This document shows, one piece after another, positions 1,431 to 53,767 of a stretch of DNA of 64,000 nt. Within the stretch, counting starts at the first letter, position 1. Each line of letters starts with the position of its first letter. The translations under genes were made by a program, and so were the position numbers. This DNA is from Artemia franciscana (lineage: Eukaryota; Arthropoda; Branchiopoda; Anostraca; Artemiidae): positions 68,333,840 through 68,397,839 of the forward strand of contig NC_088863.1 of the NCBI RefSeq assembly GCF_032884065.1. The letters run 5' to 3'. Below the pieces are notes generated by a model, which was not told where the DNA came from, searched no databases, and saw nothing but the letters and a program-made list of their open reading frames with translations.

Positions 1431-3992
<2,562 letters not shown>

Positions 3993-4072
<80 letters not shown>
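3993..4072. repeat. (AT)n microsatellite
   Basis: About 80 bases of AT dinucleotide directly follow the CTAG terminus of the Helitron on its left. Confidence 0.97.
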
Positions 4073-4073
<1 letters not shown>

Positions 4074-4468
4074 TGATGCTTAATTTAGAATGAGTACTAA
4101 TGGAAGCCTCACTTAATATTCATCCTTTTTTGTCACTTCCTCTTACTTTGTCCGATAAGTGAAGTCTAGAGAACTAAGATTTTGTAAAGATAGCATAGTT
4201 TTTTGCTTTTACCAATGCTTGAATAAGAGGATTTCCCATTGTCCTCTTTTGATCTGTCTTTTTTATATTCTAGTTTTGGGGAGAAGGGCGTGACATCCTC
4301 CTCGCCGCTTCTCTCAAACACATGTTTACATATTTTCAATTAGAGATGGTTTTGTTTAAATAACGAGAGTAATTTAGCAATGTTTTTCGGAATAAATATC
4401 GCAACTCAAATACACAATAACGCCAAATTACCAAAGTTCATTTTCTATTAGTTGAGTAATGTTTACAG

Positions 4469-4629
4469 GATCCATACAGCTACCAACAACAGGAGGAGCC
4501 TTGAACTCACACAACTCAGGAAGTATGTATAGCTCTGTGCAACCGGCTGTCCCTTCACCCAAGACGAAAGATCAGCGGTCAGTTGCTGTTAGTAGTAACC
4601 GCTGCTATGTTCCACATACATTTGGACAG
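4469..4629 (+). CDS. Unassigned gene, internal coding exon (third from end)
   Basis: The exon is bounded by a TTTACAG acceptor and a CAG|GTAATT donor. It enters in phase 1 (two bases complete a codon) and leaves in phase 0. The peptide is rich in Ser, Pro, Thr, Gly and Asn (GSIQLPTTGG... ending PHTFGQ), without a recognisable folded domain. It joins the exons at 6756 and 10283 without breaking the reading frame, which is the main evidence that it is real. The start of the gene must lie further left, beyond the Helitrons at 1431-3992 or outside the window. I cannot assign the protein. Composition suggests a disordered C-terminal region of a regulatory or RNA-associated protein, but that is a guess. 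Confidence 0.6.
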
Positions 4630-6755
4630 GTAATTTATTTTTTTTTTTTTTTAAGCCGAGGGTGTAAATTTTATATACTAATGGGGTAATGCTGAATTTG
4701 CTACAATGCTAATCTTACTGTTGTTTAGTCATTATGTAAGTAAAGAGTATTCTAGCCGTTTGTAAATTATCCAATGGCTGTCCGTGTTAAAAAGAAACAT
4801 GTAGCTGGCGAATGTGCTTCTTTTTTATCTAAAAATGTTCAACGTAGAAATACTTATTTTTCGTTTTTCAGAGGGCTCATTCGAGTAGAAACTGTAAATT
4901 TCAGTACTCATGTTTTGAAAGTGATCAGATTAAAGCAAGATGCAATATATTGGGTAAGGAGCGATGTTGCCTCTTTTTTTATGCATATCTTTCTTTTGAC
5001 CACTTATTGTAGAAGTGTGGTCGTAAGAAGAGGGCTCAATAAATTGCAAATTAACAGTTGTGCTGCTCTTTTAAGAGTCAAAAGATTTTGGAGTACTGCA
5101 AGATGCGATTTTGAGGACTAACTGTGCTTTCTTGTATCTTTTACATGTTATGACGTTATTACTACTCATGTTTGCACACACATTTACGGGAATTTAAAAT
5201 TTGACCTGAAACCCCTCGAGTATGTCGTTGGATCGAAACAAAGAAAACACCATTGAAATCGTCATCATCGAAAGCCCAATACAGACAATTTACACCCCTC
5301 CCCCCTATCTTGAACTGTTGCAAAAACAGTATATTTTTGCATGTTAAGCACTGATGTGTCCTTAACTATGGACACTTAATCAGTTGCAGCAGCAAAGAAC
5401 AAAGTCCCGTCTATACTAACTGCGAAATTTAATAATGTTTTGCAAACAAAATTGTGTTTGTAGCTGATTCAGGCATTGCCTTAAAGAGTGGCTCAACGTA
5501 GTACTCTTCTAACAATTGAAATTAAACTTCATCACACCATCTCTTTGGATATTGGTGAAAAAGATTAATGGTCTAATTAAAGGAAATTTAAGCCGGCTAA
5601 TTGATAAGTAAACCGGAATTTGGATCTAGCCTTGAACCGGTGTCTAGATCTAGCCTAGTACTGGATAGAATAACGCCCATATTCGGCTTTTGGTATGGGA
5701 GGTCATAAAAGTTCAAAAGGGGTGATAAAAAAATCCTATTGAGAACTATTCAAGAACCTAAGTGTCAATAGAAGATAGATTTTTCTTATATACTTACATT
5801 TTGCTACAGAAGTTTTATGGGTAATTAATAGTTTTTTCTAGAGAAGTTTTACGGGCAATTAGTAGTCTTTTAGAATCAAAATGAATGCTGCATAGTTTTC
5901 TTTGGAAAAACGAAATTAGACTTCATCACACCATATCGTTGGATCTTGCTAAAAAAGATTAGTGATTTGGTTTTCATTATAGTTTGTGGCTAATCTCGGT
6001 ATCTTTTAGTTACATTTCATAACTTTCGATGATTTAACGAATTTACCCTACATAGAAAATTAAAGGTCTTCCCAGTGGTTAAGGAGTATAAGCAGTTATT
6101 GATTACCTTTTCTAGTTTCAGTTGTAAATTGAACTGGATGAAAAAAATAATAGCCCCATGGGGCTTGAGACATAAGTCGATAATTGCTAGGAGATTTTCA
6201 TCCAAAAAATAGTAGTTTTTCTCTCTGGATCTGCCCGCCAAACCATAATGCGGAGATGCAATTGTATACTGATTCTCTAGTTGAGGAACTTTAAGACTAG
6301 GAAACTTTCAGCTATGTTTTGTGACTGCACAATAATGGCAACTTGAATTTGAATCGTTGCTTGTAAAGTACTTGTAACTGGAGCTATAACTCCAGTTACA
6401 CTCTTATAAAGCTTGAAGTCAAGGTTTACCCTGTTCAACATTATAAATTAGCATCGCTTGAAGAGATTAAGGAAAGTATCTATTCTTAGTGTACACGACA
6501 TCGTATTATAGTGAGTTATAATGCAGCATATTATATAGGAAATCTGCATTTCCTGGCTTTTATTTTTCCAGTCCCTTCAGAGTTACGGACTCTCGGGTCT
6601 GTGAAAAGAAACTGAATTTTTCCTCTAGTTTGTCCCTCACCAGGTGGACATATATAATGTATTTATACTCTGGGAACATAGTTGTGTTTATAAATCTCAC
6701 TAGTGATTGCCAATTGACAAGAGTACCAGAAATCTATATTCTATTTTGTTTTAAG
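4630..6755 (+). other. Intron of unassigned gene
   Basis: GT at 4630 and AG at 6754-6755. The content is AT-rich with no transposon protein. Open stretches such as 4774-5121 have no exon-like composition or splice context and are treated as chance. Confidence 0.5.
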
Positions 6756-6879
6756 GCGCAGCCAAGATTTCCAGCTCCTATCCAGCGCCCCGCTGTGACA
6801 CAACCAGGGAATGGTAAACCTATGAAACTTTCAGGCAATCAAGTTGGAGTATCTTCTGTTGAAACGTATTCATCTCAAG
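6756..6879 (+). CDS. Unassigned gene, penultimate coding exon
   Basis: The acceptor is a pyrimidine-rich stretch ending TTTTAAG and the donor is CAAG|GTAAAA. It enters in phase 0, matching the previous exon, and exits in phase 1, matching the next. The 41-codon peptide contains QPRFPAPIQRPAV and then a Gly/Asn/Ser-rich stretch. There is no known catalytic motif. The proline-rich segment could be a linear binding motif. Phase continuity on both sides is the strongest support. Confidence 0.62.
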
Positions 6880-8952
6880 GTAAAAGTTTGTTTTAAAAAA
6901 AGAAGTATTTCATTATAAAAGACTATTCTGAGGCGTCAGCTGCTCACTTTGGGGGTCTTCATCTTCTGGGATTCTCAAGTTAGTGTTCAATTTTTAGAAG
7001 AACGGTTGTAGATGATGTTTTTTCTTAATCATTACCTATTCTATATAAAATCATATTAACTTCTTCAATAAAGGGTATCCCCCATGATGCACCAGGCCCT
7101 GCAGGATCAGATTATTCGTCTTGAATGGAGAAATTCTTTTCAGATAGTCCGGGTGTCACCAATCTTAAGTTGTGGGTCGATCGTCTGACTCAGCAAGCCC
7201 AGCCGCCTGGAATATGGAGGCGATGAGCCTCTGAGGCCTAAGACTCGATTCAGTTGGTTCCGCCCCGCCACGCATCATTCATTATTACTGCTCAAAACTT
7301 ACTAGATTAAGTTATTCATTATTACTACTAAATACTTAATAGATAGATTTGTCTAAGATGTCAGATATGCCGTGTGATGCTGCCACTTCCGGAAACACTT
7401 GTAAAATGTGGTTTCCTATATTTTGATTATGGTTTTGGGATATTTTTTTATATCCTCAAGCCCCAGTTTTACTGACAGTATTTTTAGATTTAGCTAATTA
7501 GAACTTTATTTTTCTTCTAATTACATTTTCCCGAATCAAAACATTAGATTGGAACTGGTAAAAGTACTGACTGAATTTTCAGAAGGCTGAAATTACTTTT
7601 ACTAGTAATTACTGCTGTTGTAACTAAATAATATTAGTTATTCAGTAATAGCTGTTATGTAGTGACACATGAGGAATCTCCAGAATCGAGAATTTCAATT
7701 AAAAAAAAAAAATTTAATTGTCATTCAACCAAATGCTAAGACAAAAAACAGGTATGGAAGTAGTTCTGGAAGTAGATGTTTAAAAAAAATTACTGAGAAA
7801 ACCTAAATTGTAGTCAATAAAAATGGTGTGCAATTTTAGTGAGTTGCTTGTTGTGTAGAAACTTTTTACTGAACAAGAAGAAAATGTTCATTCACCAGCC
7901 TAAGAGTCCCAGACCTCATTTTGCCAACACCCAGCTCAAATCTAGTTTCTACAAATAATCATGACAAAATTAAGATTAGCCTGCATAATTCAAGTATCCA
8001 GAGAAACAAATCAGTTTTCTTTAGTATATCTTTGCCTATATGGTAATATATGGCTCATTTTTCATTTTTCACAGTCATTTTCACCTGATTTGGGAACCTT
8101 GGCTCCAACTCCCCCCCCCAGGTTTTTAACGAAATTCTAACGTTGCCTGATGCCGAACGAATCTTCTAGCTTCGTCTTTTTGGCAATGAAGCTATATTCA
8201 ATCGGGTTAGATCTTATAATTTATTAATCTAGTTCGATAGACCATTTAATTGTCATAGATGATGAACGGATACTAATTCTGCGGGCTGTATGTCGCTTTA
8301 TATGTCCGTATATTGCAAGAGATTTGCAATACCATCTAATATCTATAGAGTTAGAAACCCATAGAAATAGCTGATGATTACCTTAGATTTTAATCGTAAT
8401 ATCCAGTGATCAAGTTAAACATGTAGGTGTCGCATTAATAATTAAGGTGAGTATATTGCTATGTTTTTCTGCACCGGGCGACAATATTTTTGAAAGAATC
8501 TACAACAGCATGTAATTACTGTTTCTACTTAAAACAAGTTCCAAAAATAAAATTTTGTATTCTTTTTCCTACCTTTTCTTTTTCGAGGAATCCTAGATAT
8601 TGATGTAAAAAAGCAAAAATATTTCATTTATCGAATTGTGCAGTTTTTGCTTTTGTACAAAGGGATCTTGGGAAAAGGCAAAGAAGCGTAATCAGTCAGA
8701 CAGATGCTAGTAGTTGGCCTTTACCTAAATTTCCTGCCTACAGTTTCTCCAGCCTATTAAAATGTTACATGTAGAAAGATACGTGCATAAAAGAGAAAAG
8801 CATAAATGTAGAAAGGTATGTGAAAATGCCAAAAAAAGAAAAATATTCAAACATTAAGAAATTAAGAAAAGAATATATTTAATCATGTTGATGATTCACT
8901 GTATTTTACTTTTGATTTTTTACTGTTTGTACAAATCAAATCTGGCTGTACT

Positions 8953-13078: not shown

Positions 13079-13505
13079 GTAATTTCAACTATTTATTCTA
13101 CGGCCTTTCTGATTCAGGGGTCATTCTTAAAGAATTGGGACAAAACTTACGATTTAGTGTAAAGAAGGAGGTATTAACGAGGATACAAACCCCCTCATAT
13201 ACATAATAAAAATTAAAGAATATAAAAGTTTGTTACGTAAGTTATTTCTAAAGTTACCTATATTTTTTGCTAATAAAAAAATTCGTTAAAATTAATAGTT
13301 GCCTTTTTATGTAACCGAAAAATTGCATGGCAACTAGGCCTCCTTCCCCATCCCATATTTCTCAAAATCGAATGATCAAAACTAAGAGAAAGCCATTTAG
13401 CCAAAAAAGGAATTAAACTGCAAATTTCATTTGAATAGTTTACGTGTGGAGAGTCAAAATCAAACATGCATTAATTCAAAAACGTTCAGAAATTACATAA
13501 AAAAA

Positions 13506-13775
13506 ACTAGTTTTTTTAACTGAAAGTAAGGAGCGACATTAAAACTTAAAACGAACAGAAATTACTCCGTAAATGAAATGGATTGTCCCCTCCGCAATCT
13601 CTCGCTCTTTACGCTAAAGTTTGACTCTTTGCCACAATTCTGCGTTTTAAAACAATTAAAAGCTTTAGCGTAAAGAGTGAGGGATTGCGGAGGGGACAAT
13701 CCATTTCATATACTGAGTAATTTCTGTTCGTTTTAAGTTTTAATGTCGCTCCTTACTTTCAGTTAAAAAAACTAG
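13506..13775. repeat. Long terminal hairpin of foldback element (arms about 115 bp)
   Basis: The left arm (13506-13625) and right arm (13661-13775) are near-perfect reverse complements, both reading through GTAAGGAGCGACATT, AAACGAACAGAAATTACTC and CTCTTTACGCTAAAG. The loop is about 35 bases. The equivalent hairpin in the second copy (27478-27741) has a different inner arm sequence, but its two arms still pair. Confidence 0.85.
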
Positions 13776-14299
13776 TTTTTTTTTATGTAATATCGTTACA
13801 AGACGAAAAATCATGCAAAGCGATTTTCAAAAATGCTAATTCTTAGGTCGATAAAGTTGATCCTCAGCTAACGAATAATATCAAAATTATCGTCGTGTGT
13901 GTAAGAAATCAATAATATACAATAATAAAAAAAAGTACAGAGAGAACATTGGTCTTAATAACACGTTAGTTCTTGATTCTCAGCACACGCATAAATTTAA
14001 CGAAAACCCTGCAATAGTCGTATTTGGTTGCAAAACGCATTCATTTTTGGCAAAAATATCACTCATAATTCAAATCTTCTCGTGCAAAAATTAATAATTT
14101 TAATTATTTTTTGAATAAAAAATATAATTTTGGGCGACAAATAGAGGGTAAAAAAGGATAAAATAAAATAGAGGATAACGTTTGTTAAAATCGACTCGTG
14201 TCCCAATGGTACGAACTAACTGTCTGTTTTAATCACAGTTGACCGGCAAAGAAAGGCTTTCGAGTTTCTTATTAAATAATAAAATGTGTTTCAATTGAT

Positions 14300-24725: not shown

Positions 24726-26018
24726 ATATATATAAAAATAAGTTGTCTGTCTGTGGATGTGTGGATGGATGTGTGGATGGATGTGTCAGGTGACGTCACC
24801 TGAAAAAACTGGATTAGGTGACGTCAAAACTAAAAAAAGGCAAAAACTACAAAAAAAACTAAAAACTAATAAAAAAAATAAAAAAGCTAAAAAACTAAAA
24901 AAACTATAAAGGTAAAAACCAATAAAAAACTAAAAAAAAAACTGAAAAAACTAAAAAAAGGCAAAAACTACAAAAAAAAACTAAAAACTAATAAAAAAAG
25001 TAAAAAAGCTAAAAAACTAAAAAAACTAAAAAAACTAAAAAAAGGTAAAAAACTAAAAAAATAAAAAATAAAAAAAAACTAAAAAAAAGGAAAAAACTGA
25101 AAAATAAGCTAAAATAAAGGTAAAAACCAATAAAAAACTAAAAAAAAAAAGGAAAAAACTAATAAATGACGACACTCAAAGAGAAAGCGACCAGGACAAA
25201 AAACTAAAAAAAAAGGCAAAAACTACAAAAAAACTAAAAACTAATAAAAAAAATAAAAAAGCTAAAAAACTAAAAAAACTAAAAAAAGGTAAAAAACTAA
25301 AAAAACTAAAAACTAAAAAAAAACTAAAAAAGGTAAAAACTAAAAGAACTAAAAAAGAAAAAAATAAATGACGACACTCAAAGAGAAAGCGACCAGGACA
25401 AAAGGAATGTTCGATTAGCAATCAACAAAGCACCGGGACACAGGGAGTATAAATGACGACCAGGACACAAGTAAAAAAAAAAATTAACAAAACTAAAAAG
25501 AAGGTAAAAACTACAAAAAAACTAAAAAGAAAAAAAAACTAAAAACTAATAAAAAAACTAAAAAATCTAAAAATCTAAATAAACTAAAAAAGAAAAAAAA
25601 AGGAAAAAAATAAAGGAGAAAAACAAAACTAAAAAACGAATGTATATACAGACCGGGACACCGGGATACAAATGATGACCGGGACCCGGGACACAGGGAA
25701 TATAAATGACGACCGGGACACAGGGACACAACTACAACGGGGACACCGGGGGAAACAGGGGGATAACCTGACAATCTATTTATATGCAAAGACAATGGGA
25801 CAGCAAAGAATGTTGTATATTCGCAAGTTTTACGTAGTTAAAACCATATATATATATATATATCTATATTCACAGGTGGGACATAGGGACACAACTACAA
25901 TGGCGCGTAACTATTATGGCGCGTAACGACTTACGCGCGCGGGGGGGCTTGGGGGGGGCGCGAAGCGCCCCCACCAACTAGGTGTTGGGGTGGCGCGAAG
26001 CGCCACCCCAACAGCTAG
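24723..26018 (+). mobile_element. Non-autonomous Helitron, about 1.3 kb, complete ends
   Basis: The 5' end is TCTATATATATAAAAATAAG. The 3' end is CTAG (26015-26018) in the terminal hairpin, followed by AT repeat. It has the same order of A-rich and GC-rich blocks as the copy at 2444-3992, with almost no differences except loss of one internal unit of about 250 bp. It holds only a stub of helicase C-terminus (about 25765-25840). The TGACGTCA-type sites near its 5' end are retained. Confidence 0.88.

Positions 26019-26046
<28 letters not shown>
26019..26046. repeat. (AT)n microsatellite
   Basis: A short AT tract between the Helitron CTAG end and the start of foldback copy 2. Confidence 0.9.
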
Positions 26047-26049
<3 letters not shown>

Positions 26050-27750
26050 AACAGATCGTGGTAACGAACTGTAGTAAGGGGAAACCCGGCTCAATAGTAA
26101 CCAAAACTCTAAAAATTGGAATTTTGGTACCAATAGCTACATCAAAAGAATCGCATTTTAATGCTGATTTTAAAAATATAAGTTTCATCAAGTTTAGTCT
26201 TAATTTGAGAGAAATTGAGAAAATTTGCGTTATTTTAGAAAATAGGGGGAAACATCCCCTAAAAGTCATAGAATCTTATTGAAAATCACATCATCAGATT
26301 CAGCGTATCAGAGAACCTTGTTGTAGAAGTTTCAAGCTCCTATCTACAAAAATGTGGAATTTTATATTTTTGCCAGAAGGTAGATCACGGATGCGTGTTT
26401 ATTTGTTTGTTTTTGTCTTTTTGTTTGTTTTTGTTTTTTTTCCCAGGGGTGATCGTATCGACCCAGTTGTCCTAGAATGCTGCGAGAGGGCTCATTCTAA
26501 CGGAAATGAAAAGTTTTAGTGCCCTTTTTAAGTGACCAAAAAAATTGGAGGGCACCTAGGCCCCCCCCACGCCAATTATTTTCCCAAAGTCAACGGATCA
26601 AAATTCTGAGATAGCCATTTTATTCAGCGTAGTCGAAATCCTTATAACTATGTCCTTGAGGACGACTTACTCCCCCACAGTCCCCGTGGGAAGGGTTTCA
26701 AGTTCAAAACTTTGACCAGTGCTTACATATAGTAATGGTTATTGGGAAGTGTACAGGCGTTTTCAGGAGGATTTTTTGGTTGGAGGCAGGGGTTGAGAAG
26801 AGGGGGATATGCTGGGGGAACGTTCCATCGTGGGATTTGTCATGGGGGAAGAAAATTTCCTTGAAGGGAGCGCAGGATTTACTAGCATTACTTAAAAAAA
26901 AACAATGAAAAAATAAATATGAAAAAGTTTTTTTTCAGCTGGAAGTAAGCAGTAGCATTAAAACTTAAAACGAACAGAAATTATTACCCATATGAGGGGC
27001 TCATCTCCTCCTAATACCTCGCTCTTTACGCTAAAGTATTTTTAGTAATTTCAACTATTTATTCTGCGGCTTTTGTGATTCAGGGGTCATTCTTAATGAA
27101 TTGGGACAAAATTTAAGCTTTAGTGTTAAGAGAGGTGTACAGACAAGGGGCGAACCCCCTCATATATGTAATAAAAACATGAGAATACAAAAGTTCTTTA
27201 CGTAAGTTAATTTATAAGTTACGTAAATCTTTTACTTATAAAAAGATTCGTAAAAAATTAAAAGTTCTAGTTGCCTTTTTAATTAACCGAAAATTGGAGG
27301 GCAACTAGGCTTCCTCCCCCGCTCTTTTTTTTCTCAAAATCATTCGATCACAATTATGAGAAAGCCATTTAGCCAAAACAAATAAATATACAAATTTCGT
27401 TTTAATTATTCCTCTGCGGAGAGCCAAAATCAAACATGCATTGATTCAAAAACGTTCAGAAATTAAATAAAAAAAAACAAGTTTTCTAAATGAAAGTAAG
27501 GAGCGACATTAAAACTTAAAACGAACAGAAATTACTCCGTATATGAAAGGGGCTTTTCCTTCTCAACGCCCCGCTCTTTACGCTAATTTTTTTTTACTGT
27601 TTTAAAATGTAGAGTTAAGAGAAAGAGTCAAACTTTAGCGTAAAGCGCGGGGCGTTGAGAAGGAAAAGCCCCTTTCATATACGGAGCAATTTCTGTTCGT
27701 TTTAAGTTTTAATGTCGCTCCTTACTTTCATTTAAAAAACTTTTTTTTAT
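26047..27750. mobile_element. Foldback-type non-coding element, copy 2
   Basis: It has the same start (CAAACAG, then GTGGTAACGAACTG) and the same order of blocks as 12089-13790, at about the same length. It ends in a long hairpin with arms 27478-27586 and 27633-27741. The shared blocks have drifted by many substitutions and small indels, so this is an old dispersed family. No transposase ORF is present. Confidence 0.68.
27478..27741. repeat. Terminal hairpin of foldback copy 2
   Basis: The arms pair through GAAAGTAAGGAGCGACATT and GGGGCTTTTCCTTCTCAACG. The inner part of the arm differs from copy 1, yet both arms of each copy agree with one another. That suggests arm-to-arm correction or replication through a hairpin. 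Confidence 0.85.
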
Positions 27751-27880
27751 TCAATATAGATCAAAGAGCGGTATGCCAGTTTGGCAATAATAAGGATTAC
27801 AGTGGCACACAATTGTATCCGCATTGGCAAGACCTGTGAAAATTAGAGCTTTGAATTTGTTCATTTCATTTCAAGGAATG

Positions 27881-43448: not shown

Positions 43449-43900
43449 CTGGCTGTTGGGGTGGCGCTTCGCGCCACCCCAACACCTAGTTGGTGGGGCG
43501 CTCCCCCCTCCAAGCCCCCCGTGCGCATAAGTCGTTACGCGCCATATTAGTTACGCGCCATTTTAGTTCTGTCCCTGTGTCCCACCTGTGATTAGAGATA
43601 GATATATATGTCTTTACTCGCTGTTGGGGTGGCGCTTCGCGCCACCCCAACACCTAGTTGGTGGGGGGCTTCGCGCTCCCCAAGCCCCCCCGCGCGCGTA
43701 AGTCGTTACGCGCCATATTAGTTACGCGCCATTGTAGTTGTGTCCCTGTGTCCCACCTGTGAATAGAGATAGATATAAATATATGTTTTTAACTACGTAA
43801 AACATGCGAATATACAACATTCTTCGCTGTCCCATTGTCTGTGCTTATAAATAGATTGTCAGGTTTACTGACTCTTGAACATGCAACATATAATTGTCCA
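43449..43900 (-). mobile_element. Two partial Helitron 3' ends in tandem, cut by the gap
   Basis: Terminal hairpins of GGGGTGGCGC type start at 43449 (CTGG, a changed CTAG) and 43617 (CTCG). The first directly touches the 5' end of the Helitron at 40165-43448 with no spacer. The second continues into helicase C-terminal sequence until the N gap at 43901. Confidence 0.72.
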
Positions 43901-44000
43901 NNNNNNNNNNNNNNNNNNNNNNNNNNNNNNNNNNNNNNNNNNNNNNNNNNNNNNNNNNNNNNNNNNNNNNNNNNNNNNNNNNNNNNNNNNNNNNNNNNNN
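43901..44000. other. Assembly gap (100 N)
   Basis: Exactly 100 N. Helitron-tail sequence is in minus orientation on the left and plus orientation on the right, so the gap also marks an orientation switch. Confidence 0.99.
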
Positions 44001-44619
44001 GGGACAGAGGGAATGTAAATGACGACCGGGACACAGGGACACAACTACAACGGGGACGCCGGGGGCACAGGCGGGATATATAAATGACGACCGGGACACA
44101 GGGATTGTTCGAATAGAAATTAAAGACCGGGACACCGGGACACAAATGACGACCGGGACACCGGGACACAGGGAATATAAATGACGACCGGGACACTCAA
44201 AGAGAAATTACAAACTGGGACACCGGGACACAAATGACGACCGGGACACAGGGAATATAAATTACGACCAGGACACAGGGACACATCATTAGAATAATGA
44301 GGTATAGATCTGAATACGGATTGTTTTTCCCATGGACAATTATATGTTGCATGTTCAAGAGTCAGTACACCTGACAATCTATGTATATGCACAGACAATG
44401 GGACAGCGAAGAATGTTGTATATTCGCATGTTTTACGTAGTTAAAAACATATATTTATATCTATCTCTATTCACAGGTGGGACACAGGGACACAACTACA
44501 ATGGCGCGTAACTAATATGGCGCGTAACGACTTACGCGCGCGGGAGGGGCCTGGGGGGGGCGCAAAGCGCCCCACCAGCTAGGTGTTTGGGTGGCGCGAA
44601 GCACCACCCCAACAGCTAG
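44001..44619 (+). mobile_element. Helitron 3' portion, mirror of 47455-48070
   Basis: Minisatellite, helicase C-terminal remnant and GC-rich tail ending at CTAG (44616-44619). The whole segment is the near-perfect reverse complement of the sequence from 47455 to about 48070. The next Helitron body starts at 44620 without spacer. Confidence 0.8.
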
Positions 44620-44659
44620 TATATATATAAAAAGTAAGTTGTCTGTCTGTGTGTCTGTC

Positions 44660-44740
44660 AGGTGACGTCATGTGTCTGTGTCGAATGACGTCATAAAGTT
44701 ATTTGTCGTCATTTTTGCTATGACGGTGACGTCATTAAAG
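44660..44740 (+). promoter_or_regulatory. TGACGTCA cluster upstream of Helitron Rep gene
   Basis: Perfect 8-bp TGACGTCA palindromes at 44663-44670, 44686-44693 and 44727-44734, with a half site GTCGTCA between. TGACGTCA is the cAMP-response element bound by CREB/ATF proteins in animals. The same sites appear in the 5' regions of the other copies, which suggests a promoter or a Rep-binding site. Confidence 0.5.
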
Positions 44741-44777
44741 ATATTTAAGACATATATGTTCACGTAGAAATCTATTA

Positions 44778-45746
44778 ATGTTTAAGTTTAAAATGACTGA
44801 TGAACTTACAATGGCAAAAGCCGATGAAGATGCTCAAAGAGTCTATGCCAAAAAACTTGCTGCTGATAGAGAAAGTCAGAAAAGAATGATAGAGAGAGAA
44901 TTGCTGAAACTCATCGATGCTACGATGCCCTACAATATCCTATCATTTTTTGGGATGGAGCCGACGGCTATCACTTTAATATTAAATTGATGAATCCAGC
45001 CACTAACAAAGAAATGAATAAGAAATGAAGTGCAATGCATTATTATTCCTATAGACTAATGATTCGGCAGGATGAAGAAAATTATATTTTAAAATGCCAT
45101 GAATTGTTTCACCAATTTGTCGTTGATATCTATGCTAAAATTGAATCAGAACGTTTGCTATATATCCGCCTGAATCAGACCAAGCTCCGCTCTGAACAAT
45201 ACATTCATTTGCGAGATGCAGTTATAAATGACGGTAATACCACAAACGTTGGAAGATTAACAATTTTACCTTCGTCATATGCTGGCAGTCCCCGTCATAT
45301 GCATGAATATGCTCAAGATGCTATTGCGTATGTTCGTCTCTATGGTCGTCCAGACTTATTTATTAGATTTACCTGTAATCAATCTTGGGACGAGATACTG
45401 CAGCTTTTACTTCAAGGACAATCGGCGGTTCATAGGCATGACATTACGGCCCGTGTCTTCCGGCAAAAGTTGAAATAACTGATAAACTATATAGTAAAAA
45501 CTTGAAGTGTTTGGGTCAGTGCGATGCTGGATGTGCTCAGTGGAATGGCAAAAAACGAGGTTTGCCACACGCACATATACTAATCTGGCTACATAAAAAA
45601 ATTACTTCGAACGAAATTGATGATGTGATTTCCGCTGAAATACCTGATAAAAATGTCGATAAGGGGTTACATGATATTATTGTAAAAAAATATGATACAT
45701 GGACCTTGCGGTGCATTGAACGAAAATTCACCATGCATGGCCAAAG
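44778..45746 (+). pseudogene. Helitron Rep-helicase fragment, left arm
   Basis: It begins MFKFKMTDELTMAKADEDAQ and runs into repeat 1, then jumps by deletion into the middle of the protein and goes out of frame (stop at 44988-44990). From 45035 the Helitron_like_N (Rep) domain is readable: MHYYSYRLMIRQDEENYIL, YIRLNQTKLRSEQYIHLRDA, RLTILPSSYAGSPRHMHEYA and YGRPDLFIRFTCNQSWDEI. After another frame break comes the HUH metal-binding motif RGLPHAHILIWLH (about 45555-45600), with both His intact. The reading ends at the palindrome centre, before the catalytic Tyr motif. Confidence 0.85.
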
Positions 45747-47297
45747 CTTCCTTTGGCCATGCATGGTGAATTTTCGTTCAGTGCAACGCAAGGTCCATGT
45801 ATCATATTTTTTACAATAATATCATGTAACCCCTTATCGACATTTTTATCAGGTATTTCAGCGGAAATCAAATCATCAATTTCGTTCGAAGTAATTTTTT
45901 TATGTAGCCAGATTAGTATATGTGCGTGTGGCAAACCTCGTTTTTGCCATTCCACTGAGTTCATCCAGCATCGCACTGACCCAAACACTTCAAGTTTCCT
46001 GCCGAATCATTAGTCTATAGGAATAATAATGCATTGCACTGCATTTCTTATTCATTTCTTTGTTAGTGGCTGGATTCATCAATTTAATATTAAAGTGATA
46101 GCCGTCGGCTCCATCCCAAAAAATGATAGGATATTGTAGGGCATCGTAGCATCGATGAGTTTCAGCAATTCTTAACAACTGAGCGTTTTGCTTATGAAGA
46201 ATAATATCTCGAGGTAAAAACTGATCACCGACCATAACGATTGCCACTTCGTCGATAGTTGGAGCATTGTATCTACGCACATGTTGGCCAGGAGGCGTTT
46301 TGTCAGCGGAAATAACAATTTTATGCGTATCAGTAGGCATCAAATCGATGGCTGTTTTGAACAGACGCACTAAATTATTATTTTCGTGGAAAAGATGTTG
46401 CAATTGATAAACGATTGTAGTTTATACGTTGGGAGAAATTTCACAACGTGCATTCAATTCAGAATTTCTATCACTGATGAAGTACAATTGTAAAAATTTA
46501 TGATTCTCGCCTGAGAATGGTAGAAGGGACCCTGCTCAATGATAAATTTGCCCTTTTACTTTGAAAGTAGACATAAATTGATCTGTATTTTCAATTTGGG
46601 CTCCAAACGACGGCATTTGGAAACATGAGTTGTATTTTCTGATTTGTGACAAAAAACGCTTAGATTCTGACGTAGTTCCAGTAAGGAAAGTCTTCAATGG
46701 CTCTGGTGGTGCAGCCAATAGAGGAAGTTTAACTTTTCCTGAGGCGCAACACATTCCCATTGTTTCACCATTGAATTTCAAGGCCTTGCAAGAGGGACAA
46801 ATTTTAGACATTGTCCCGATTTGAACACATCTACTCAAGCTATAATCATCGACTGGGCTGTACCTGGATGCCAGGCGATAACTTTCAGGTTGCTCTGATT
46901 CTTCGGCACACTTTCTTTTCTTACTTTCTCTATCAGCAGCAAGCCTGATTTCTTGCTGTTCTTGTGATTCCTCGGCACGCTTTCTTTTCCTACTTTCTCT
47001 ATCAGCAGCAAGCCTGATTTCTTGCTGTTTTTGTGATTCCTCGGCACACCTTCTTTTTTCACTTTCTCTTTTAGCAGCAAGTCTGCTTTCGCGTTGCTCT
47101 GGTAGTTCCTCGGCACGCTTTCTGTTCTTTCTTTCTCTATCAGCCTCAAGCCTGTTTCCTTGCTGTTCTTTTGATTCCTCGGCACGCTTTCTTTTCTGAC
47201 TTTCTCTATCAGCAGCAAGTTTTTTGGCATAGACTCTTTGAGCATCTTCATCGGCTTTTGCCATTGTAAGTTCATCAGTCATTTTAAACTTAAACAT
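45747..47297 (-). pseudogene. Helitron Rep-helicase fragment, right arm
   Basis: On the minus strand, 47297-46536 encodes 253 residues: MFKFKMTDELTMAKADEDAQ, five 23-residue basic repeats, RYSPVDDYSLSRCVQIGT, the CPSCKAL...MCC cluster and GKVKLPLLAAPPEPLK. After a frameshift, 46403-45990 reads HLFHENNNLVRLFKTAIDLM, YNAPTIDEVAIVMVG and the intact IIFWDGADGYHFNIKLMNP. A deletion then skips to GSVRCWMNSVEWQKRGLPHA and the HUH box PHAHI, ending at the palindrome centre. This is the best-preserved N-terminal half in the window. Confidence 0.85.
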
Positions 47298-47454
47298 TAA
47301 TAGATTTCTACGTGAACATATATGTCTTAAATATCTGTAATGACGTCACCGTCATAGCAAAAATGACGACAAATAACTTTATGACGTCATTCGACACAGA
47401 CACATGACGTCACCTGACAGACACACAGACAGACAACTTACTTTTATATATATA
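45747..47454 (-). mobile_element. Helitron 5' body, right arm of the inverted repeat
   Basis: Minus-strand mirror of 44620-45746. Its 5' end lies at 47454, directly next to the CTAG end (47455-47458) of the Helitron at 47455-48765. It keeps the full N-terminal gene region but lacks part of the Rep core. Confidence 0.82.
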
Positions 47455-48765
47455 CTAGCTGTTGGGGTGGTGCTTCGCGCCACCCAAACACCTAGCTGGT
47501 GGGGCGCTTTGCGCCCCCCCAGGCCCTCCCGCGCGCGTAAGTCGTTACGCGCCATATTAGTTACACGCCATTGTAGTTGTGTCCCTGTGTCCCACCTGTG
47601 AATAGAGATAGATATAAATATATGTTTTTAACTACGTAAAACATGCGAATATACAACATTCTTCGCTGTCCCATTGTCTGTGCATATACATAGATTGTCA
47701 GGTTTACTGACTCTTGAACATGCAACATATAATTGTCCATGGGAAAAACAATCCGTATTCAGATCTATACCTCATTATTCTAATGATGTGTCCCTGTGTC
47801 CTGGTCGTAATTTATATTCCCTGTGTCCCGGTCGTCATTTGTGTCCCGGTGTCCCAGTTTGTAATTTCTCTTTGAGTGTCCCGGTCGTCATTTATATTCC
47901 CTGTGTCCCGGTGTCCCGGTCGTCATTTGTGTCCCGGTGTCCCGGTCTTTAATTTCTATTCGAACAATCCCTGTGTCCCGGTCGTCATTTATATATCCCG
48001 CCTGTGCCCCCGGCGTCCCCGTTGTAGTTGTGTCCCTGTGTCCCGGTCGTCATTTACATTCCCTCTGTCCCGGTCGTGATTTGTGCCCGGGTGTCCCAGT
48101 CTGTAATTTCTCTTTGAGGTTCCCGGTCGTCACTTATATTCCCTCTGTCTCGGTCGTCATTTGTGTCCCGGTCTGTAATTTCTCTTTGAGTGTTTTTTCT
48201 TTTTAGTTTTTTTTTACTTTTTTACCTTTTTTCTTTTTTCAGTTTTCTTTTTCTTCTTTATTTTTCAGCGTCACTATGAAGTACATATCGAAGAACCTTT
48301 GTTTTTTTAACTTAAATCTGGTAGGCATTGATGACCTTATCCAAGTCAAAATCCCATACCCAATCATCATCGCTATCATTTTCAGTTTTGATATGTTTTG
48401 ACTCTCGCTGTCCAGGTGGATTTTCATCTAACTGCGCGGTTTTGCGTTCTTTAGCCGCAAGCCTGTTTTCTTGCTGTTCTTGTGATTCCTCGGAACGCTT
48501 TCTTTTCTTACTTTCTCTATCAGCAGCAAGTTTTTTGGCATAAACTCTTTGAGCAGCTTCCTCGGCTGTTGCCATTGTAAGTTCTTCAGTCATTTTACAA
48601 TTAAACATTTTTCCGCGAACAAATGTCTTAAATACCGTTAATGACGTCACCTTCATGGAAAAAATGACGACAACTAACTTCATGACGTCAGTCGACACAG
48701 AAACATGACGTCACCTGACAGACAGACAGACACACAGACAGACAACTTATTTTTATATTTATAGA
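47455..48765 (-). mobile_element. Non-autonomous Helitron carrying a hybrid ORF, complete ends
   Basis: On the minus strand the 5' end TCTATAAATATAAAAATAAG is at 48765 and the 3' end CTAG with hairpin is at 47455-47458, about 1.31 kb. From 5' to 3' it has TGACGTCA sites (48651-48716), a 98-codon ORF (48608-48312), a T/A-rich block, minisatellite, helicase C-terminal remnant and GC-rich tail. Its 3' half is the right-arm counterpart of 44001-44619. Confidence 0.8.
48312..48608 (-). CDS. Hybrid Helitron ORF with acidic C-terminus (98 aa)
   Basis: The start is the MFNCKMTEELTMATAEEAAQ Met used by the other Helitron copies (48608); an in-frame Met further upstream lies in the terminal repeat region and is less likely. 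It keeps one 23-residue basic repeat and a partial second. It then diverges to KTAQLDENPPGQRESKHI and the acidic ENDSDDDWVWDFDLDKVI, ending NAYQI. The last part is absent from the other Rep copies. Its DNA (GGATAAGGTCATCAATGC) also occurs at 35141-35158. The ORF is open but short; function unknown, possibly the relic of a captured host exon. Confidence 0.5.
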   Translation of the reverse strand: MFNCKMTEELTMATAEEAAQRVYAKKLAADRESKKRKRSEESQEQQENRLAAKERKTAQLDENPPGQRESKHIKTENDSDDDWVWDFDLDKVINAYQI

Positions 48766-48769
48766 AGAT
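48766..48769. other. Junction between two divergent Helitron 5' ends
   Basis: The minus-strand element starts at 48765 and the plus-strand element at about 48770, so two 5' ends face away from each other. The plus-side boundary is approximate because its TC dinucleotide is not preserved in the GATAGATATAGATAAG sequence. Confidence 0.5.
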
Positions 48770-48892
48770 AGATAGATATAGATAAGTTGTCTGTGTGTCT
48801 GTGTGTAGAGTGACGTCATGTCATCAGGTCGTCATGTCGTCATTATGAAGATGACGTCATTAAAGATATTTAAGACATTCGTTCACGGAAAA

Positions 48893-51800
48893 ATGTTTAA
48901 TAGTAAAATGACTGAAGAACCTACAATGTCAACAGCTGAGGAAGCTGCTCAAAGAGTCTATGCCAAAAAACGTGCTGCTGATAGAGAAAGTAAGAAAAGA
49001 AAGCGTGGCGAGGAACCACAAGAGCAACGCAAAACCAGACTTGCTGCTAAAAGAGAAAGGGAAAAAAGAAGGCGTGCCGAGGAATCACAAGAACAGCAAG
49101 GAAACAGGCTTGCGGCTGATAGAGAAAGTAAGAACAGAAAGCGTGCCGAGGAATCACGAGAGCAACGCGAAATCAGACTTGCTGCTAAAAGAGAAAGTGA
49201 AAAAATGAAGGCATGCCGAGGAATCACAAGAACAGCAAGAAAACAGGCTTGCGGCTGATAGAGAAAGTAAGAAAAGAAAGCGTGCCTAGGAATCACAAGA
49301 GCAACCTGAAAATTATCGCCTGGCATTCAGGTACAGCCCAGTCGATGATTATAGCTTGAGTAGATGTGTTCAAATCGGGACTATGTCTAAATTTGTCCTT
49401 ATTGCAAGGCCTTGAAATTCAATGGTGAAACAATGGGAATGTGTTGTGCCTCAGGAAAAGTTAAACTTCCTCTATTGCCTGCACCACCAGAGCCATTGAA
49501 GACTTTGCTTACTGGAACTATGTCAGAATCTAAGCGCTTTTTATCACAGATCAGAAAATATAACTCATGTTTCCAAATGACGTCGTTTGGTGCCCAAATC
49601 GAAAATCCAGATCAATGTATGCCTACTTTCAAAGTAAAAGGGCAAATTCAATATAGAGCAGGGTCCCTTCTACCATTCTCAGGCGAGAATCATAGATTTT
49701 TACAATTGTACTTCATCAGTGATAGAAATTCTGAATTGAATGCACGTTGCGAAATTTCTCCCGACGTTGAAAGGACAATCGTTTCCCAATTGCAACATCT
49801 TTTCCACGAAAATAATAATTTAGTGCCTCTCTTCAAAAGAGCCATCGATTTGATGCCTACTGATACGCATAAAATTGTTATTTCCGCTGACAAAACGCCT
49901 CCTGGACAACATGTGCGTAGATACAATGCCCCAACTATCGACGAAGTGGCAATCGTTATGGTCGGTGATCAGTTTTTACCTCGAGATATTATTCTTCATA
50001 AGCGAAATACTCAGTTGGTAAGCATTGCTGAAACTCATCGATGCTACGATGCCCTACAATATCCTATCATTTTTGGGATGGAGCCGACGGCTATCACTTT
50101 AATATTAAATTGATGAATCCAGACACTAAGAAAGAACTGAATTAGAATTGCAGTGCAATGCATTATTATTCCTATAGACTAATGATTCGGCAGGATGAAG
50201 ACAATTATATTTTAAAATGCCGTCAATTGTTTCACCAATATGTCGTTGATATGTATGCAAAAATTGAATCAGAACGTTTGCTATATATCCGTCTGAATCA
50301 GACCAAGCTCCGCTCTGAACAATACATTCATTTACGAGATGCAGTTGTAAATGACGGTAATACCACAAAAGTTGGAAGATTAACGATTTTACCTTCGTCA
50401 TATGCTGGCAGTCCCCGTCATATGCATGAATATGCTCAAGATGCTATTGTGTATGTTCGTCTCTATGGTCGTCCAGATTTATTTATTACATTTATTTGTA
50501 ATCAATCTTGGGACGAGATACAGCAGCTTTTACTTCAAGGACAATCGGCGGTTCATAGACATGACATTACGGCCCGTGTCTTCCGGCAAAAGTTGAAATC
50601 ACTGATAAACTACATAGTAAAACTTGAAGTGTTTGGGTCAGTGCGATGCTGGATGTACTCAGTGGAATGGCAAAAACGAGGTTTGCCACACGCACAGATA
50701 CTAATCTGGCTACATAATAAAATTACTTCTAACGAAATTGATGATGTGATTTCCGCTGAAAAACCTGATGAAAATGTCGATGTGGGGTTATATGATATTG
50801 TTAAAAAGTATGATACATGGACCTTGCGGTGCACTGAACGAAAATTCACCATGCATGGCCAAAGGAAGGTGCACAAAGCAATATCCTCGACTTTTAGTAT
50901 CCAGCACAATTACTGGCAATGATGGTTACCCAGAATATAGAAGAAGATCTACTGAAGATAGCGGTAAAACAGCAATAATAAAGAAGGCGGTAAACGGTAA
51001 AACCAGTGGGTTGTTCCATATTCCCCATTATTATCAAAAACATTTAATGCACACATAAACGTTGAATACTGTAAGGCAATCAAATACATATGTAAATACG
51101 TCAACAAAGGCAGTGACATGGCCGTTTTTGGCTTGCAGTCCGAAATCAAAGATATCGACGAAATCGTACAATATTAGGCTGGAAGATACATAAGCAGTAA
51201 TGAAGCTGTTTGGCGAATTCTTTCATTTCCGATACATGAACGTATTTCAGCTGTTGTTCACTTAGCGGTAATTTACAGAATGGTCAACGTGTTTATTTTT
51301 CGGAATCCAACGTGCAACAAAGAGCCCTGAATCCATCGGATACAAAGTTAACTGCTTTCTTTTCGCAATGCAAAAATGATTCTTTTGCAAAAAACTGTTG
51401 TATACTGAAGTGCCTTGGTATTACACGTGCAATACTAAAAATAAAGTATTTGAACGTCGAAAACAGGGTAAGTCAGTCGACGGGCAACCTACCATCTTCA
51501 AAGATACAACGATAGGAAGACTCTACACCGCTCACCCCAATCAACATGAATGCTTCTTGCCACGCCTGCTTTTGGTGAATGTACCCGGTCCGACGTCCTT
51601 TGAGTGTTTGAGAACTATAAACGGTACTATACATGACACTTACCGTAGTGCATGCCAAGCTCTGAATTTATTGGAGAATGACCAACACTGGGATAACTGC
51701 ATCAATGATGCGTGCGAAACGTCAACTCCTATTCGTGCATTGTTTGGCATCATACTAACAACTCCTACAGCTCCTACAGAGTTATGGGAAAAATATAAAT

Positions 51801-53432
51801 AAAAAATGTCCGAAAATATACTCCATCGAAAATCGGTTAGAGACGTCAGATATGACTTTTGATTTTACATCAGAAATTTATAACTACACTTTAGTTATTA
51901 TAGAAGATTTGTGCGTATGTATGGCAAACAAACCTCTTCAGGATTTGGGAATGCCTTCACCTAATCATAGCGCTGCTGTTTCGACATGTGTAGAATTGGA
52001 TCGTGAACAAAGTTACAGTACCAGTGATCTATTGTCGTATGTACAAAATAACATTTCCAAGTTAACGTCGGAACAAAAAGACATTTATGATACGATAATG
52101 CATTGTGTCGATAACAACGTTGGAGAAATTTTCTTTTTGGATGCGCCAGGAGGTACTGGTAAAAAGTTTATGATAAAACTGATTCTGGCATCAATTCGAT
52201 CAGAAAATGATATAGCGTTGGCAATTGCGTCGTCCGGAATAGCCGCAACGTTGCTGCCTGGTGGAAGAACTGCTCATTCCGCTTTGACATTGCTCTGAAT
52301 TTGCATTCTACAGAAACTCCAACGTGTAATATTTCCAAATCATCTGGGATGGGTAAAGTATTGCAGCAATGCTAACTTATTATTTGGGACGAGTGCACAA
52401 TGGCACACAAAAAATCGCTCGAGGCTCTGGATCAATGTTTGAAAGATTTGCGAGGGAATTCGAAACCCTTTGGCAGCACATTAATATTGCTCGCGGGAGA
52501 TTTCAGGCAAACATTACCTATAATACCTAGATCAACCCCTGCAGACGAAATGAATGCTTGCTTGAAAAATTCTAATTTATGGGCACACGTAAAAACATTA
52601 AAATTAACTACAAATATGCGTGTCCGATTGCAAAACGATGACTCTGGTCAAACATTTTCAGATCAATCGCTGGCAATTGGAAATGGAAAGCTCCCAGTAG
52701 ACTCAATTTCAGGACTTATACAACTACCTGCTGAATTCTGTAATTTAGTGACGTCCAAAAATGAATTGATTGAAAAAGTATTTCCGAATATTCTAAACAA
52801 TTATAAAAATAATAAATGGCTAAGTGAAGGAGCGATTCTTGCAACCAAAAATATAGACGTCCACGAAATCAACAATATTTTTTTGACCAAGATTCGAGAC
52901 CAGGCAGTCCTTTACAAGTCAGTCGACACAGTTTTGGAACCAAATGAGGTGGTTAATTATCCATCTGAATTTTTAAATTCCGTGGTTCTTTCAGGGTTTC
53001 CACCAAACGTGCTACAACTAAAAATAGGCGTACCAATAATACTGTTAAGAAATATCAACCCACCAAATCTTTGCAATGGCACGCGACTTGCCGTAAAAAA
53101 AAACAATGGAAAACGTAATAGAGGCCACAATCTTGACAGGGCCTTTTGAGGGTGAGGCTGTTCTTATTCCTCGCATTCCCATGATTCCAACGGATCTGCC
53201 TCTTCAATTTAAAAGATTGCAATTCCCAATTCGATTAGCATTTGCAATCACCATCAACAAAGCTCAAGGTCAATCATTAGAAAAATGTGGTATAGATCTT
53301 AATACTGATTGTTTTTCCCATGGACAGTTGTACGTTGCATGTTCGAGGGTCGGTAAACCTGACAATCTATGTATTTGCAGCCACAATTTGACAGCGAAGA
53401 ATGTTGTATATTCGCAAGTTTTACGCAGTTAA
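48893..53432 (+). pseudogene. Helitron Rep-helicase, full length but broken
   Basis: Order: MFNSKMTEEPTMST; five basic 23-residue repeats (frameshift near 49200, TAG near 49286); Cys cluster and GKVKLPLLPAPPEPLK; the Helitron_like_N domain; HUH box GLPHAQILIWLH (50683-), whose second His is Gln here; catalytic two-Tyr motif AIKYICKYVNKG (51076-51111); then a PIF1-like helicase. The helicase has Walker A DAPGGTGKKF (52141-), Walker B LIIWDECTMAH (52378-), GDFRQTLPI (52497-), TTNMRVRL (52609-), FAITINKAQGQS (53241-) and LYVACSRVGKPDNL (53329-). It ends YSQVLRS-stop. At least eight frameshifts or stops, including TAA just before LIIWDE. Known role of the family: Rep nicks and joins DNA during rolling-circle transposition; the helicase unwinds it. 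Confidence 0.9.
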
Positions 53433-53767
53433 TTTGTATTGTATCTATCTATCTATCTATCTATATAAAAACGAGTTGTGTGTATGCATGTTTGTTTGTT
53501 TGTAAAAAGAGCGTTTGCATATGACGTCATTATAAGTACATAAGGCTTTGTATATGCACAGACAATGGGAAAGCCAAGAATGTTGTATATTCGCAAATTT
53601 TACGTACTTCAAAACACATATATAAATCTATTTATATTCATAGGTGGTACACAGTGACACAATTACAATGGCGCGTAACTAATATGGCACGTAACGACTT
53701 ACGCGCACGGGGGGGCTTTGGGGGGGCGCAAAGCGTCCCCACCAACTAGGTGTTGGGATGGCGCTAG
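53433..53767 (+). repeat. Helitron tail with an embedded 5'-terminus-like segment
   Basis: Right after the helicase stop come (ATCT)n, TCTATATAAAAACGAGTTG and GTTTGCATATGACGTCATTA. This order matches the 5' end of the Helitron at 33095 (TCTATATACATAAAAATAAG, GCATATGACGCCATTATAAG). It is followed by a repeat of the helicase C-terminal DNA (GACAATGGGAAAGCCAAGAA) and the GC-rich 3' tail. The same arrangement is at 61630-61969. Confidence 0.7.

What the first reader, a model, noticed from the sequence alone, without database searches (positions are those of the whole stretch)
43620..48210. Large mirror-image block of two Helitrons with alternating orientation
Sequence is inverted around 45746/45747 over about 2 kb, with only a few differences outside two large, non-overlapping deletions (one per arm). 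A second orientation switch lies at the N gap (43901-44000). Each arm has the order [3' end of one Helitron]-[5' end of another] with no spacer, so the duplication copied a pre-existing head-to-tail junction. This could come from rolling-circle replication with template switching to the opposite strand, a hairpin-resolved break, or a chimeric assembly. If real, it is an uncommon rearrangement for Helitrons.
Basis: partly seen in the sequence, partly recalled or inferred. Interest (0 to 1): 0.75.

Follow-up and report, generated by a model that had tools for sequence, protein, structure and literature searches.

The report
Fold-back inverted duplication inside a Helitron
A stretch of old jumping-gene DNA (two Helitrons stuck together) appears to have been copied backwards next to itself, most likely by ordinary break repair or replication slippage and not by the jumping mechanism; it is a tidy example of a known kind of rearrangement, although an assembly error is not excluded because one arm ends at a gap.

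Summary
The mirror image is real in the sequence. The arms are 44001-45746 and 45751-48071, with a 4-nt spacer; 1,306 paired columns hold 9 substitutions and 5 one-base indels. Each arm also has one large private deletion (1,016 nt left, 425 nt right). The centre occurs once in the 1.27-Gb assembly. Of 40 scored candidates (8,003 in the first look), the right arm is the left outer arm's nearest relative: 99%, 1561 bits; next 1272 bits at 95%, part-length matches up to 97%. So the arms are most likely sister copies. Derived substitutions fall on both (4 left, 5 right), unlike a copied read. The turn lies in the Rep gene and joins with 0 bp homology. The spacer-free Helitron-to-Helitron join is ordinary here: 1,277 exact copies. 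The strand change at the N gap is most likely another Helitron tail (93-95% alike), not a second turn. Best reading: a local fold-back inverted duplication of an existing Helitron pair, then decay. Main rival: an assembly fold-back, because the left arm starts exactly at a contig edge; only reads can settle this. Rolling-circle strand switching is not supported. Low interest; a new example of a known kind.

The parts
44001..45746 (+). left arm of the inverted duplication (E1 tail, E1/E2 join, E2 5' part to the Rep centre); begins exactly at the edge of the N gap
45751..48071 (-). right arm; same order read on the minus strand; E1 continues beyond it
45747..45750 (.). 4-nt spacer CTTC (GAAG on the Rep-sense strand of the right arm); family sequence shows it belongs to the right arm
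44887..44896 (+). 10 nt TGATAGAGAG at the 1,016-nt deletion of the left arm; TGATAGAGA also stands a few nt upstream (look of a templated insertion)
   Evidence: the template reading is inference
46173..47188 (-). segment kept in the right arm, absent from the left
45073..45497 (+). segment kept in the left arm, absent from the right; the right deletion junction occurs exactly once in the genome
47455..48765 (-). E1: short non-autonomous Helitron, 5' TCTATAAATATAAAAA, 3' ...CAACAGCTAG; both ends placed by eye
45749..47454 (-). E2 5' part (TATATATATAAAAG..., N-terminal charged repeats, Rep N-part) up to the centre; the family's first two bases (TC) are missing at the join
44620..45746 (+). inverted copy of the E2 5' part
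43617..43900 (-). Helitron 3' tail ending CGAG on the other side of the gap; most likely a separate copy (93-95% to the arms overall), possibly E2's own tail
43901..44000 (.). 100-N gap; contig edge at 44001
48784..53764 (+). neighbouring longer Helitron copy used as paralogue (Helitron_like_N in 50146-50922; PIF1 helicase in 51759-52298 and 52376-53149); limits approximate

Best explanation
A local fold-back inverted duplication in the chromosome. Two Helitrons (E1, a short one, and E2) lay head to tail on the minus strand. At a break or stalled fork inside E2's Rep gene, ligation or synthesis turned back on the same DNA with a 4-nt loop (GAAG) and no junctional homology. It copied outward about 2.7 kb of the original (2.3 kb of it still seen in the right arm), through E2's start, the E1/E2 join and at least 0.62 kb of E1's tail. 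Both arms then decayed on their own: a 1,016-nt deletion with 10 new nt on the left, a 425-nt deletion on the right, and 4 and 5 substitutions. Shown: the palindrome, the close kinship of the arms, the 0-bp join, private changes on both arms. Inferred: that it exists in the animal's DNA, the break or fork step, which arm is the original, and how the far end was closed (hidden in the gap).
For: The right arm is the best non-self match to the left outer arm among 40 scored candidates (99%, 1561 bits against 1599 for self; next 1272 bits at 95%; part-length matches up to 97%; 8,003 in the first look). The centre is unique in the genome. The right deletion junction is unique (the one-mismatch C12 hit has no match to these Helitrons in its 3 kb). 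Derived substitutions, polarised with other copies: 4 on the left, 5 on the right. Family sequence at the centre, from the window paralogue and from C3, is GGCCAAAGGAAGGTGC, giving a 4-nt asymmetric, 0-homology join. Short-loop fold-backs are known: median predicted loops of 4 and 3 nt in yeast mre11 and sae2 mutants (PMC7467729, passages). Another palindrome (~1-kb arms, 98%, (TA)n centre) lies in the flanking 200 kb, about 18 kb from the nearest N stretch, so such a structure also occurs away from gaps.
Against: The left arm starts exactly at a contig edge (44001). All five one-base indels lie in homopolymer runs with the left arm longer, as consensus errors might. Removing the left arm would leave a simple E1, E2, tail order on one strand across the gap. 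In the inner 426 columns the arms share no derived change against two other copies and in the innermost 249 bp they are 97.2% alike, less than the left arm is to other copies (97-99%). Only 40 of 8,003 candidates were scored. No reads could be inspected.
Confidence: 0.68

Rival explanations
1. Assembly artefact: a fold-back (template plus complement) or amplification-chimera read at a contig end was built into the assembly, perhaps mixing two haplotypes.
For: The left arm ends at the contig edge. Fold-back reads are a documented long-read artefact (PMC12870357, passages) and whole-genome amplification makes artificial palindromes (PMC6218980, abstract). The homopolymer indels all go one way (5 of 5).
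Against: A fold-back of one molecule should not give two different large deletions, one per arm, nor derived substitutions on both arms (4 and 5). It would need two haplotypes that differ by both deletions to be fused. Among the 40 scored places of the outer-arm search there is no third sister copy, such as an alternative haplotype.
Confidence: 0.25
2. Helitron rolling-circle replication switched strands during transposition and made the palindrome.
For: The arms are DNA of a Helitron family whose neighbouring copy encodes Rep and PIF1 domains; in the inner 426 columns there is no sign of ageing before the copy was made.
Against: The centre occurs once in a genome with more than a thousand joins of this family. 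The duplication runs across two separate elements. The outer arm shares changes absent from the other local copies compared (6 of 286 and 4 of 248 columns). The turn is at no Helitron end.
Confidence: 0.05
3. Two independent Helitron copies of the same family met in opposite orientation by chance.
For: The family is very numerous and the head-to-tail join recurs 1,277 times; the innermost 249 bp are no closer between the arms than to other copies.
Against: Both would have to be cut within 4 nt of the same point, and in the outer 886 bp the arms are closer to each other than to any of the other scored copies.
Confidence: 0.02

Closest known systems
Fold-back inversion with short-loop hairpin (yeast mre11 and sae2 class; PMC7467729, passages)
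   Same: inverted copies joined at a loop of a few nt, made from one local sequence
   Different: here within a 71-Mb scaffold, no microhomology at the join, outer end hidden in a gap; species and genotype unknown
Human fold-back inverted duplications (PMC3907307, passages)
   Same: non-inverted and inverted copies of one region around a single-copy spacer
   Different: human spacers 766-70,466 bp in 21 sequenced junctions and megabase duplications; here 4 nt and a few kb
Head-to-tail Helitron pairs (maize, PMC2267711, passages; bat examples quoted there)
   Same: CTAG of one element directly followed by the start of the next
   Different: there CTAG/TC; here CTAG/TATATATATAAAA, lacking the TC
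Palindromic gene blocks of Folsomia candida (PMC5490193, passages)
   Same: palindromes made by inverted duplication in an animal genome
   Different: those are multi-gene blocks; here a few kb of transposon DNA

Membership tests
Helitron (Rep/Hel rolling-circle transposon) | Rep domain (Helitron_like_N) and PIF1-type helicase in the family | tested here: met
   neighbouring copy: PF14214 2.2e-54, PF05970 3.1e-24 and 3.2e-29; the left arm matches this copy at 94.7% over 850 nt of the Rep part, the right arm at 89-94%. The arms' own broken Rep pieces were not scanned; the right arm's N-terminal frame (46536-47345) gave no Rep match, only a sub-threshold repeat match.
Helitron (Rep/Hel rolling-circle transposon) | 3' CTRR end preceded by a GC-rich hairpin | tested here: met
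   E1 in both arms...GGGTGGCGCGAAGCACCACCCCAACAGCTAG, stem imperfect
Helitron (Rep/Hel rolling-circle transposon) | 5' TC end (E2 of the arms) | tested here: not met
   E2 begins TATATATATAAAAG at the join; other copies (window 24740, two in L025) and E1 have TC first. E2 is therefore read as a Helitron fragment that lacks its first two bases, by kinship and not by its own ends.
Helitron (Rep/Hel rolling-circle transposon) | insertion between A and T without target duplication | tested here: inconclusive
   T follows at 13 of 13 matches of the AACAGC-AG end form (the other 16 of 29 pattern matches are internal look-alikes); the 5' flank of E2 is another Helitron
fold-back inverted duplication | arms are copies of one local sequence | tested here: met
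   (99%; next 95% by score, up to 97% over part; 40 of 8,003 candidates scored)
fold-back inverted duplication | unique spacer (loop) at the axis | tested here: met
   4 nt
fold-back inverted duplication | microhomology at the turn (frequent, not required: 13 of 21 human junctions had 2-8 bp) | tested here: not met
   overlap 0 between the two matched sides (human figures from passages); end ligation or hairpin capping fits better than primed annealing
fold-back inverted duplication | present on single DNA molecules | not testable with these tools
   no reads available

The most novel reading that the evidence does not exclude
In this Helitron family the join CTAG|(TA)5AAAA (1,277 exact copies against 35 with (TA)4) is not random nested insertion but a precise product of its replication, a tail-to-head concatemer lacking the TC, and strand turning within such concatemers now and then leaves palindromes like this one.
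Probability: 0.06. Interest if true: 0.55.

Novelty: new member of a known kind. Interest (0 to 1): 0.2.

Why it matters
If real, it is a well-resolved example of an interstitial fold-back duplication with a 4-nt loop and a blunt join, with private deletions in both arms, as one expects when a long palindrome loses its symmetry. It also warns that strand switches in Helitron clusters need not come from Helitron replication. Beyond that it is ordinary.

Tried and rejected
The tail left of the gap as a third copy of the same event: suggested by a 98% match over 216-223 nt next to the gap, judged unlikely because the whole tail is 93-95% alike and its flank differs; not excluded. Ageing before duplication: supported in the outer arm (6 and 4 shared derived columns; 2 of the 3 left-only columns of the E1 tail there lie in a G run that score as gaps, and I did not count them), not in the inner arm (one search gave 16 shared columns with one outgroup; with a second outgroup one search gave 0 shared, 3 left-only after leaving out the 4 spacer columns, 3 right-only). 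A higher difference rate near the axis: p = 0.066 (substitutions) and 0.080 (with indels), not significant. Palindrome control: besides the 200 kb of flanks only 40 kb from four contigs could be fetched; no kb-scale axis-symmetric palindrome there, one of 301 bp. Left-arm deletion junction in the genome: one search used a mistyped pattern (0 hits, not even the window), so it is void; the corrected pattern occurs once in the window (plus strand) and did not complete genome-wide. Counts of the TC-containing join (nine tries), of (TA)6 (one try) and of the gapped join pattern (one try): not answered. Pfam on the broken Rep stretch of the left arm: stops in frame, left out; 8 proteins were scanned. 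One search compared nothing (wrong file name); redone.
Full report
What is there. Between the N gap (43901-44000) and 48071 the sequence folds on itself around 45748/45749 with a 4-nt spacer. The arms pair over 1,306 columns with 9 substitutions and 5 one-base indels (one base counted twice). The left arm lacks 1,016 nt that the right arm keeps (46173-47188) and has 10 other nt there; the right arm lacks 425 nt that the left keeps (45073-45497).

What the DNA is. The arms belong to a Helitron family. A longer copy on the plus strand at about 48784-53764 encodes Helitron_like_N (PF14214, 2.2e-54) and a PIF1-type helicase. Each arm reads: tail of element E1 ending ...CAACAGCTAG, then the start of element E2 (TATATATATAAAAG...), then E2's N-terminal coding part up to a point in Rep. 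On the minus strand E1 looks like a complete short element, 48765 to 47455 (ends placed by eye).

The spacer-free join is ordinary here. CCCCAACAGCTAG followed by (TA)5AAAA occurs 1,277 times exactly in the genome (619 + 658; reversed-pattern control 0), against 35 times with (TA)4. The two arms are 2 of the 1,277. Several other copies sit in long (TA)n runs, and one sampled locus holds units of about 1.6 kb head to tail, about 99% alike (L025). Adjacent Helitrons with CTAG next to TC are known from maize, with bat cases quoted there (PMC2267711, passages).

The arms are most likely sister copies. Searching the left outer arm (44001-44886) against the genome gave 8,003 first-look candidates, 40 of them scored. 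The right arm came second only to the query itself (99%, 1561 bits against 1599). The next had 1272 bits at 95%; matches over part of the query reached 97%. The 20-nt centre occurs once in the genome. The right arm's deletion junction occurs once exactly; the only one-mismatch hit, on C12, has no match to these Helitrons in its 3 kb. Two unrelated copies meeting by chance is therefore very unlikely. In the innermost 249 bp the picture is weaker: the 40 scored places include many copies 97-99% identical to the left arm (336 in the first look), while left and right are 97.2% alike. This fits a conserved coding stretch with private changes on both arms: 3 left-only, 3 right-only and 0 shared derived substitutions in 426 columns against two other copies.

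How the join was made. Two other copies (window 50.85 kb; C3) show the unrearranged sequence GGCCAAAGGAAGGTGC. The right arm follows it to GGAAG and then continues with the complement from CTTTGG; the two matched sides overlap by 0 nt. This is what a broken end with a 4-nt 3' overhang would give if its strands were joined into a hairpin and copied, or if two sister ends were joined (inference). Predicted loops of 3-4 nt are typical of one fold-back class in yeast mre11 and sae2 mutants (PMC7467729, passages), whereas human inverted duplications had spacers of 766-70,466 bp in all 21 sequenced junctions (PMC3907307, passages). The 10 nt in the left deletion contain TGATAGAGA, which also stands just upstream; a templated end-joining insertion is my inference.

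Real or artefact. Against an artefact: the arms differ by two large, non-overlapping deletions, and polarised substitutions fall on both arms (4 left, 5 right). A fold-back read copies one molecule and should not do this. For an artefact: the left arm begins exactly at a contig edge, all five one-base indels are in homopolymer runs with the left arm longer, and dropping the left arm would leave E1, E2 and a tail (43617-43900) all on the minus strand across the gap. Fold-back reads are documented (PMC12870357, passages; PMC6218980, abstract). As a local control, the 264 kb of window plus flanks hold one other kb-scale axis-symmetric palindrome at the filters used (80% identity, 60 nt, low-complexity arms left out): 1,993 bp, 98% alike, centred on (TA)n, about 18 kb from the nearest N stretch. 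The same scan also shows a 546-nt, 97% inverted pair with a 394-nt spacer about 6 kb from another gap, and about ten symmetric palindromes of 78-310 bp. I put about 0.68 on a real fold-back duplication and 0.25 on an assembly error.

Why not Helitron replication. The event crosses two elements, turns at no Helitron end, and its centre occurs once in the assembly. In the outer arm, 6 of 286 and 4 of 248 columns carry changes shared by both arms but absent from the other local copies compared, so the pair seems to have aged before it was copied; the inner stretch does not confirm this. A search for papers with both 'Helitron' and 'inverted duplication' returned 14, none of which describes such a case in its title or the listed start of its abstract (listing only); two wider searches listed 20 of 299 and 20 of 21 papers and I saw none there either (listings). 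This is not proof that none exists.

The second switch. The tail left of the gap is 93-95% identical to the arms over its whole length, while the arms are 97.7-98.6% alike there, and its flank beyond the 3' end differs. Its 216-223 nt next to the gap are however 98% alike to the arms. I take it as another copy, possibly E2's own end. How the left arm is joined to it is hidden by the gap.

Verdict. Interest 0.2.

Noticed in passing
join at 44619/44620 and 47455/47454; genome-wide: The join CTAG|(TA)5AAAA occurs 1,277 times exactly, with (TA)4 only 35 times. It equals the family's 5' end minus its TC. Whether this is one amplified composite or a precise joining process is open.
   Followed up: partly
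window 43449/43448, minus strand: A join of the textbook form, CCAG followed directly by TCTATATATATAAAC, beside the arms' TC-less form.
   Followed up: no
L025 (C2:5000001-5010000), about 2443-7314: Helitron units of about 1.6 kb head to tail, about 99% alike, separated by (TA)n.
   Followed up: no
C1:68420667-68422659 (86828-88820 in window numbering, outside the window): Another palindrome: arms of about 1 kb, 98% alike, centred on a (TA)n run; in the part of the output that was shown, the arms match only each other and simple repeats in the held sequence.
   Followed up: partly
window 3740-4014 and 25766-26040: Two Helitron tails (with some (TA)n flank) identical over 275 of 275 aligned bases, a sign of recent activity.
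   Followed up: no
window 48501-49000: Two Helitron 5' parts head to head: 156-nt inverted arms 93% alike, 188 nt apart; looks like nested insertions.
   Followed up: no
window 13489-13794 and 27470-27751, and similar ones outside: Recurrent symmetric palindromes of about 300 bp (82-93% alike), perhaps a miniature transposon family.
   Followed up: no
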